Origin: Sphingobacteriales bacterium
Lineage (GTDB): Bacteria; Bacteroidota; Bacteroidia; Sphingobacteriales; Sphingobacteriaceae
Direction: 5' to 3'
Assembly (NCBI GenBank): GCA_004294495.1
Contig: REAS01000043.1
Span: 1 to 64,000, forward strand
Length of the DNA: 64,000 nucleotides
Position 1 is the first letter of the stretch, and each line of letters starts with the position of its first letter. Shown piece after piece: positions 122 through 24,663 of the stretch. The position numbers and the translations under genes were made by a program. The notes beneath the pieces were generated by a model, which ran no database searches, was not told where the DNA came from, and was given only the letters and a program-made list of their open reading frames with translations.

Positions 122-350
122 AACCTGAGTTCGATTGTTAATTATAATATAAATTACTGTTTATCAATATTATAAACTATTTTTTGCGTTAACGATCGCA
201 GCGGCATCCTTTTTTTATCCCCCTAGCCCCCAAAGGGGGAATACGGTAAAATCCCCCCTTTGGGGGTTAGGGGGAAAAAAGATAGAGCGAAGAGCGTGTT
301 AAAACGCCCTAATCATTACAAAAACAACATTTATTAATCGAACTCAGGTT
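122..350 (+). repeat. MITE-like element, copy 1
   Basis: 14-bp perfect TIRs AACCTGAGTTCGAT (122-135) and ATCGAACTCAGGTT (337-350); flanked by AGG/AGG (119-121, 351-353); internal GCGTTAACGATCGCAGCGGCATCC and GTGTTAAAACGCC blocks shared with copies 2 and 3; no ORF inside. Confidence 0.85.
219..274. repeat. GC-rich hairpin at the centre of repeat copy 1
   Basis: CCCCCTAGCCCCCAAAGGGGGA (219-240) is nearly the reverse complement of TCCCCCCTTTGGGGGTTAGGGGG (252-274). Confidence 0.8.
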
Positions 351-419
351 AGGATAATCTTTTTTAAGAAATATAAAACCTATAGTTATTGTTTAACAAT
401 TTGTGTTACCAAACATTTA

Positions 420-15962: not shown

Positions 15963-16190
15963 AACCTGAGTTCGATTATTAAGATATAGTATAATTAGCT
16001 GTAAACCAATGGTATTTACGATTTTAAAGCGTTAACGGTGGCAGCGGCATCCTTTTTTTTCGCCGAAACTCTCCCTTCGGGGGTTGGGGGGATAGAAAAG
16101 TAAAAAAAAGATATAGCGGACGGCGTGTTAAAACGCCCAAATCATAATCAAAACTATAGTGAACAATGTTTTATTAATCGAACTCAGGTT
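15963..16190 (+). repeat. MITE-like element, copy 2
   Basis: Same 14-bp TIRs (15963-15976, 16177-16190); flanked by TAT/TAT (15960-15962, 16191-16193); shared GCGTTAACG...GCAGCGGCATCC and GTGTTAAAACGCCC blocks. Confidence 0.85.
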
Positions 16191-16408
16191 TATTCTAACC
16201 TATGTATTATCCATTTGTTTTACACTTTTACTGTAAAACAATTTCAAGACAAAACATCCAAATAATGTGATAGATTAATTTTAAAAAATAATTGATTTGG
16301 TGTCATATTTGTTTAAGCTATTTATAAATTCGTATTATTTAAATTTTGTATTGCTGTTAAATCATAATTTTTCTAAATATCTTTGCTAGGCTGTCTCAAA
16401 TATAATCT

Positions 16409-24380: not shown

Positions 24381-24394
24381 AACCTGAGTTCGAT
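24381..24394 (+). repeat. solo MITE-like terminal repeat
   Basis: AACCTGAGTTCGAT, 27 bp before the first end of copy 3. Confidence 0.75.
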
Positions 24395-24421
24395 ATCAGA
24401 TGATTTTTATATTTTAGTAAT

Positions 24422-24634
24422 AACCTGAGTTCGATTAATAAATGTTGTTTTTGTAATGATTAGGGCGTTTAAACACGCTCTTCGCTCTATCTTTTTTTAT
24501 TTATCTATACCCCCGCCCCCCGAAGGGGGAGTTTCGGCGTAAAAAAAGGATGCCGCTGCGATCGTTAACGCAAAAAATAGTTTATAACATTGATAAACAG
24601 TAATTTATACTATAAATAACAATCGAACTCAGGT
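24422..24634 (-). repeat. MITE-like element, copy 3 (inverted)
   Basis: TIRs AACCTGAGTTCGAT (24422-24435) and ATCGAACTCAGGT (24622-24634); reverse complement closely matches copy 1 outside the GC-rich centre. Confidence 0.85.
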
Positions 24635-24663
24635 AAATAATTAAGGCAAAGGGTAAATTAGAA

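What the first reader, a model, noticed from the sequence alone, without database searches (positions are those of the whole stretch)
122..350. A three-copy MITE-like repeat family with 14-bp TIRs AACCTGAGTTCGAT, no coding capacity, and apparent 3-bp target duplications
Copies at 122-350 (+), 15963-16190 (+) and 24422-24634 (-) share TIRs, subterminal blocks (GCGTTAACG..GCAGCGGCATCC and GTGTTAAAACGCC) and total length. Copies 1 and 2 are flanked by AGG/AGG and TAT/TAT, as expected for transposition with a 3-bp duplication. The two halves are also imperfectly complementary beyond the TIRs, so a transcript or ssDNA could fold into one long hairpin. Three copies in 64 kb suggests a high genomic copy number. 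No transposase with these ends is visible here.
Basis: partly seen in the sequence, partly recalled or inferred. Interest (0 to 1): 0.75.

Follow-up and report, generated by a model that had tools for sequence, protein, structure and literature searches.

The report
IS982-type MITE carrying Flavo-1 hairpin
The repeats are real short mobile DNA elements moved by a common bacterial jumping gene (IS982 family), and their core is Flavo-1, a conserved hairpin long catalogued as a small RNA of unknown function, which here behaves like a dispersed DNA repeat.

Summary
Observation confirmed.

The genome (2.38 Mb) holds 48 exact TIRs and at least 41 full-length copies; 27 of 41 carry exact 3-bp duplications (shuffled mean 4.1, maximum 12 in 5000). 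The missing transposase is IS982-family. Nine full-length IS982 copies with identical TIRs and 3-bp duplications occur in three congeners. In this genome seven contigs break inside IS982 ends, one set in frame with the transposase C-terminus.

This genome has at least 110 Flavo-1 matches. Flavo-1 is also abundant in congeners with no exact TIR, so it is a separate repeat that the MITE captured. Its arms covary (71 of 75 standard pairs).

IS110-family elements insert site-specifically into Flavo-1 here and in two congeners, as IS621 does into REPs. Flavo-1 therefore looks REP-like rather than like an sRNA gene (inference). How bare Flavo-1 copies spread is unresolved.

The MITE is of a known kind (compare the Cardinium IS982 MITE). 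The Flavo-1 core and IS110 addressing appear new.

The parts
122..350 (+). MITE copy 1 (229 bp)
   Evidence: TIRs exact at both ends; MITE profile 203.9 bits
119..121 (.). target duplication AGG, left of copy 1
   Evidence: sequence
351..353 (.). target duplication AGG, right of copy 1
   Evidence: sequence
122..135 (+). left TIR AACCTGAGTTCGAT
337..350 (-). right TIR
181..305 (+). Flavo-1 (RF01705) core of copy 1; apical part 218-275 is a nested CCCCCTAGCCCCCAAAGGGGG palindrome
   Evidence: cmscan 46.8 bits, gathering 42, E 6e-07; fold
15963..16190 (+). MITE copy 2 (228 bp)
   Evidence: TIRs exact; profile 217.0 bits
15960..15962 (.). target duplication TAT, left of copy 2
16191..16193 (.). 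target duplication TAT, right of copy 2
16024..16134 (+). Flavo-1 core of copy 2 (just below gathering score)
   Evidence: 40.4 bits, E 3.1e-07 in whole-genome search
24422..24635 (-). MITE copy 3 (214 bp); outermost TIR base at 24635 is T
   Evidence: profile 241.8 bits
24636..24638 (.). target duplication ATT, 5' of copy 3 on its own strand
24419..24421 (.). target duplication ATT, 3' of copy 3 on its own strand
24467..24576 (-). Flavo-1 core of copy 3
   Evidence: cmscan 47.7 bits, E 3.4e-07
24381..24394 (+). solo TIR 27 bp beyond copy 3, perhaps a relic of an older nested copy
   Evidence: exact match

Best explanation
The three repeats are members of a non-autonomous MITE family mobilised in trans by an IS982-family (DDE) transposase. 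The enzyme recognises the AACCTGAGTTCGAT ends, cuts them and inserts the element into AT-rich intergenic targets, leaving 3-bp duplications. The family arose when IS982 ends came to flank a resident Flavo-1 hairpin, which now forms its core, and it has since amplified to at least 41 full-length copies. Shown here: ends, duplications, copy number, autonomous partner with the same ends, Flavo-1 core, and Flavo-1 existing without the ends. Inferred: trans-mobilisation, the direction of capture, and that the hairpin is kept as a structured DNA or RNA rather than as an sRNA gene.
For: Copy number 48 TIRs, control 0. 41 full-length copies, 27 with 3-bp duplications; with at most 1 TIR mismatch 14 of 17; adjacent 2-, 4- and 5-bp matches only 7, 3 and 0. 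The best copy pairs are 96-98% identical, so some copies are young. Nine of nine full-length IS982 copies in G013, G003 and G004 have identical TIRs and 3-bp duplications; Tnp hits NF033520 IS982 E 4.7e-80 and PF13612. In this genome C5, C16, C105 and C111 end in the IS982 left end and C50, C129 and C134 in its right end, which translates to LIAYSFFPKKPSIKYETQKTNQVSLFY* and matches the G003 element at 80%, E 6e-16. IS982 loci across Bacteroidota carry the same TIR; 51 have both ends and 21 of these a 3-bp duplication. Flavo-1 core. Flavo-1 without TIRs: G007, G009, G017 and G050 have 0 exact TIRs but at least 65, 65, 65 and 32 Flavo-1. Arm covariation. An occupied site after an rsmB-like gene is unoccupied in G015.
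Against: No intact IS982 gene is in the held assembly; its presence is inferred from contig ends. The empty site is supported by homology across the junction on one side only (about 12 bp), because the other neighbour gene is not syntenic. No transposition was observed. 14 of 41 copies lack an exact duplication, as expected for decayed ends but also compatible with recombination.
Confidence: 0.92

Rival explanations
1. Flavo-1 is a trans-acting sRNA gene family that dispersed by duplication, and the IS982 TIRs are incidental neighbours.
For: Rfam files it as 'Gene; sRNA'; arms covary, so the structure is maintained.
Against: At least 110 copies in 2.4 Mb, no strand or gene-context preference. 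In F. psychrophilum hits lie indistinctly sense or antisense of transcripts and many are untranscribed (PMC9723704). Copies are interrupted by IS110.
Confidence: 0.07
2. Flavo-1 is itself mobilised as a REP by a RAYT (Y1) transposase, and the IS982 ends were added secondarily in this lineage.
For: High copy, extragenic, hairpin, present in all 17 congeners; RAYT genes (PF01797) are common in the genus.
Against: Only 3 of 20 RAYT loci have a Flavo-1 within 1.5 kb, roughly what copy density alone predicts; RAYT genes are not flanked by it. For the MITE copies IS982 TIRs and duplications suffice.
Confidence: 0.12
3. The element is a bidirectional transcription terminator or insulator kept for the host, not a parasite.
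For: Strong hairpin flanked by T and A runs; all checked copies are intergenic.
Against: No enrichment between convergent genes: full-length MITEs 9 tandem, 5 divergent, 2 convergent. Decay of many ends and interruption by IS110 indicate weak constraint.
Confidence: 0.1

Closest known systems
MITECca01 of Cardinium cOegib (PMC9769881)
   Same: About 240-bp, non-coding, high-copy MITE with the ends of an IS982-family element (ISCca4), mostly intergenic.
   Different: Described there as a deletion derivative of its parental IS; here the interior is a separately dispersed Flavo-1 hairpin.
IS982 family insertion sequences
   Same: Same TIR AACCTGAGTTCGAT and 3-bp duplication as full-length members in Bacteroidota.
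   Different: No transposase; homology to the own-genome IS982 ends stops about 20 bp inside each end.
Flavo-1 RNA, RF01705 (Weinberg 2010, PMC2864571)
   Same: Core matches over all 76 model positions; arms covary.
   Different: Catalogued as a structured RNA/sRNA; here it is the body of a transposable element and a dispersed repeat.
REP elements as IS110/IS621 targets (Choi 2003; Tobes and Pareja 2006, cited in PMC11208160)
   Same: High-copy extragenic palindrome used as a sequence-specific landing site by IS110-family elements.
   Different: No RAYT association found; different sequence, so far seen in Bacteroidota.

Membership tests
MITE | short, non-coding, terminal inverted repeats | tested here: met
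   172-289 bp, 14-bp TIRs
MITE | target-site duplications of the parent's length | tested here: met
   27 of 41 exact 3-bp, shuffle maximum 12; parent IS982 9 of 9 3-bp
MITE | autonomous element with the same ends, in the genome or its relatives | tested here: met
   full-length in G003, G004, G013; contig-end evidence in own genome
MITE | high copy number | tested here: met
   48 TIRs, 41 full-length copies
MITE | unoccupied orthologous sites | tested here: inconclusive
   G015 is unoccupied after the rsmB-like gene, but only about 12 bp of homology on one side; the aspS site is not syntenic in relatives
MITE | demonstrated trans-mobilisation | not testable with these tools
   needs a transposition assay
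IS982 family (for the partner) | IS982-type DDE transposase | tested here: met
   NF033520 268.7 bits against cut-off 130; PF13612 242 bits
Flavo-1 (RF01705) | score at or above gathering cut-off, full model | tested here: met
   copies 1 and 3 above 42 bits; copy 2 at 40.4 bits, just below
Flavo-1 (RF01705) | compensatory base changes in the arms | tested here: met
   71 of 75 standard pairs, shuffle mean 31.5; G-C, T-A, C-G and A-T all seen; 75 rows, 48 distinct
REP/RAYT system | repeats flank a RAYT gene | tested here: not met
   3 of 20 RAYT loci have one within 1.5 kb
sRNA gene | discrete transcript | not testable with these tools
   no RNA-seq held; F. psychrophilum data argue against

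The most novel reading that the evidence does not exclude
Flavo-1 is not an RNA gene but the REP-like extragenic palindrome of Flavobacteriia. Different mobile elements exploit it independently: IS982 MITEs take it as their body, and IS110 elements carry bridge RNAs addressed to it. A parallel exists in congener G002, where the IS982 MITE core and the IS110 target are both the other common repeat (CATTGCGAGG..GAAGCAATC).
Probability: 0.45. Interest if true: 0.66.

Novelty: new variant of a known kind. Interest (0 to 1): 0.52.

Why it matters
Flavo-1 is listed among the most abundant bacterial sRNA families (PMC9029176), yet no function for it turned up in the papers found here since its description in 2010. 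Showing that it is a dispersed hairpin spread inside an IS982 MITE in one lineage, and used as an address by IS110 elements, would explain why transcriptomics found it in either orientation or untranscribed. It suggests that genome annotations calling each copy an sRNA gene should be revised. It also makes testable how a MITE acquires a resident palindrome, and offers natural IS110 guide-target pairs in Bacteroidota.

Tried and rejected
RAYT/REP mobilisation: Flavo-1 does not flank RAYT genes. Terminator or insulator role: no convergent-gene enrichment. Search of the own genome for the IS982 domain: none in the assembly, explained by contig ends. Empty site for copy 2 via aspS: synteny is lost even in the closest congeners. 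Exact TIR + Flavo-1 pattern in GTDB r220 contigs: no hit, with the own genome possibly left out, so the combination may be restricted to this lineage. The viral-contig scan gave no answer. A first regular-expression attempt at the covariation count found nothing because the pattern was too strict and was replaced. IS110 guide matching was convincing only for the G005 element; G011 and G002 gave 6-7 nt left-target matches, which shuffles reach in about 6-12% of cases.

Full report
OBSERVATION. The three copies are present as described, with small corrections. Copy 3 spans 24422-24635 on the minus strand; its outermost TIR base is T. It too has a 3-bp duplication, ATT. In the whole genome (192 contigs; the window is contig C162) the TIR occurs 48 times, against 0 for the reversed-pattern control. 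A profile built from six copies and run over all own-genome loci fetched gave 41 full-length copies of 172-289 bp. About a dozen more are cut by contig ends, by an inserted IS or by loss of one end. Exact 3-bp duplications flank 27 of 41 copies (14 of 17 when both TIRs have at most one mismatch). Re-pairing the flanks at random gives a mean of 4.1 and a maximum of 12 in 5000. Matches of 2, 4 and 5 bp are 7, 3 and 0. Some copies are 96-98% identical, others about 80%, so the family has both young and old members.

THE TRANSPOSASE. Congeners G013 (seven copies, 1010 and 1036 bp), G003 and G004 carry full-length elements with the identical TIR, all nine with 3-bp duplications. Their ORFs are IS982-family transposases (NF033520, E 4.7e-80; PF13612). 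The held assembly of the window's genome has no PF13612 match. However, four contigs end about 98 bp inside one end of an IS982 and three inside the other. The latter reads LIAYSFFPKKPSIKYETQKTNQVSLFY*, the transposase C-terminus, and matches the G003 element at 80%. The autonomous element is therefore most likely present in several copies and was lost from the assembly as a collapsed repeat. Across Bacteroidota and a few other genomes, 51 IS982 loci carry this TIR (up to 3 mismatches) at both ends and 21 of them a 3-bp duplication. Homology between the MITE and the own-genome IS982 ends stops about 20 bp inside each end.

THE CORE. Flavo-1 is a 2010 computational RNA candidate (PMC2864571). 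A transcriptome study of F. psychrophilum found it in either orientation and often untranscribed, without a clue to function (PMC9723704). The window's genome has at least 110 matches, 92 above cut-off, and only 150 of 580 candidates were scored. All 17 congeners searched have it. In G007, G009, G017 and G050 it is abundant although the exact TIR is absent from those genomes; the copies read from G007, G017 and G050 are bare hairpins of roughly 70-120 bp. Stand-alone copies of the same subfamily in the window's genome match the MITE profile mainly over positions 57-193, without the ends. So Flavo-1 is a separate repeat and the MITE is a composite. The hairpin is maintained: at one arm position G-C, T-A, C-G and A-T pairs all occur, 71 of 75 standard against 31.5 expected after shuffling. 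At the next position T-A and C-G account for 75 of 75. The 75 rows include some copies twice; 48 arm pairs are distinct. Quasi-palindrome repair could also produce such covariation, so this does not prove selection on an RNA.

CONTEXT. Copies checked lie between genes, without enrichment between convergent genes and without strand preference. One copy lies directly after the stop codon of an rsmB-like gene; in G015 the orthologous sequence runs through the insertion point without the element. The other neighbour is not syntenic, so this is a one-sided empty site.

IS110 TARGETS FLAVO-1. Seven contigs of this genome end in the same sequence joined to Flavo-1 at the same point in the 5' foot (GC^GT^TAACG), and two show the opposite junction; the core dinucleotide GT is present on both sides. 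A decayed copy in G005 shows the element's ORF beginning ..FTIIAGIDVSKLKLDMS, the IS110-family N-terminus (read by eye from the sequence; identification from known IS110 motifs, no profile run on it). Its 5' non-coding end contains CCGTCGTTAA, a 10-nt match to the Flavo-1 target of the MITE (0 of 1000 dinucleotide shuffles reach it), as expected of a bridge RNA guide. A different IS110 in G011 (two copies, 99.5% identical, found by PF02371) sits in two different Flavo-1 copies at the 3' foot with core CT. In G002 an IS110 inserts in the CATTGCGAGG repeat, and the same repeat forms the core of that genome's IS982 MITE (L051). IS110-family insertion into REPs is known (IS621; cited in PMC11208160). 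This is the main reason I read Flavo-1 as REP-like.

VERDICT. A MITE of the IS982 family is a known kind (Cardinium MITECca01, PMC9769881). What appears new is that its body is a catalogued RNA family, and that this family is a shared resource for unrelated mobile elements; four papers in the library name Flavo-1 by accession and three by name, and none of those read links it to mobile elements. How bare Flavo-1 spreads remains open; a RAYT link was tested and not supported.

Noticed in passing
G000 contigs C109, C154, C159, C170, C172, C178, C190 (right junctions) and C8, C138 (left junctions); G005 L208: An IS110-family element inserts at one exact point in the 5' foot of Flavo-1 (core GT); its 5' non-coding end carries a 10-nt guide-like match to the target.
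   Followed up: partly
G011 loci L193 and L199: A second, different IS110 (391 aa) sits in two different Flavo-1 copies at the 3' foot, core CT.
   Followed up: partly
G002 loci L051, L198, L201, L204-L206: In G002 both the IS982 MITE core and the IS110 target are the CATTGCGAGG..GAAGCAATC repeat rather than Flavo-1.
   Followed up: partly
window 24381-24394: Solo TIR 27 bp beyond MITE copy 3, perhaps the remnant of an older copy.
   Followed up: no
window 218-275 and L007, L030, L080, L084, L090: Apical loops and arms of Flavo-1 hold further nested palindromes (CCCCCTTCGGGGG types, CTGCCTGCCGGCAGGCAG, AATTGCGGTTGGCTTAAGCCAACCGCAATT), as if Flavo-1 were a hot spot for other small palindromic repeats.
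   Followed up: no
own-genome Flavo-1 groups b, c and d, e.g. L060, L089, L108: Flavo-1 falls into several subfamilies with different conserved 3' tails, such as GCGGGACTATCGGCCGCCA..TTTTCAAAA and AGCTGGTACAAATTGAGTT..GTTGCTTCAAA; their mode of spread is unknown.
   Followed up: partly
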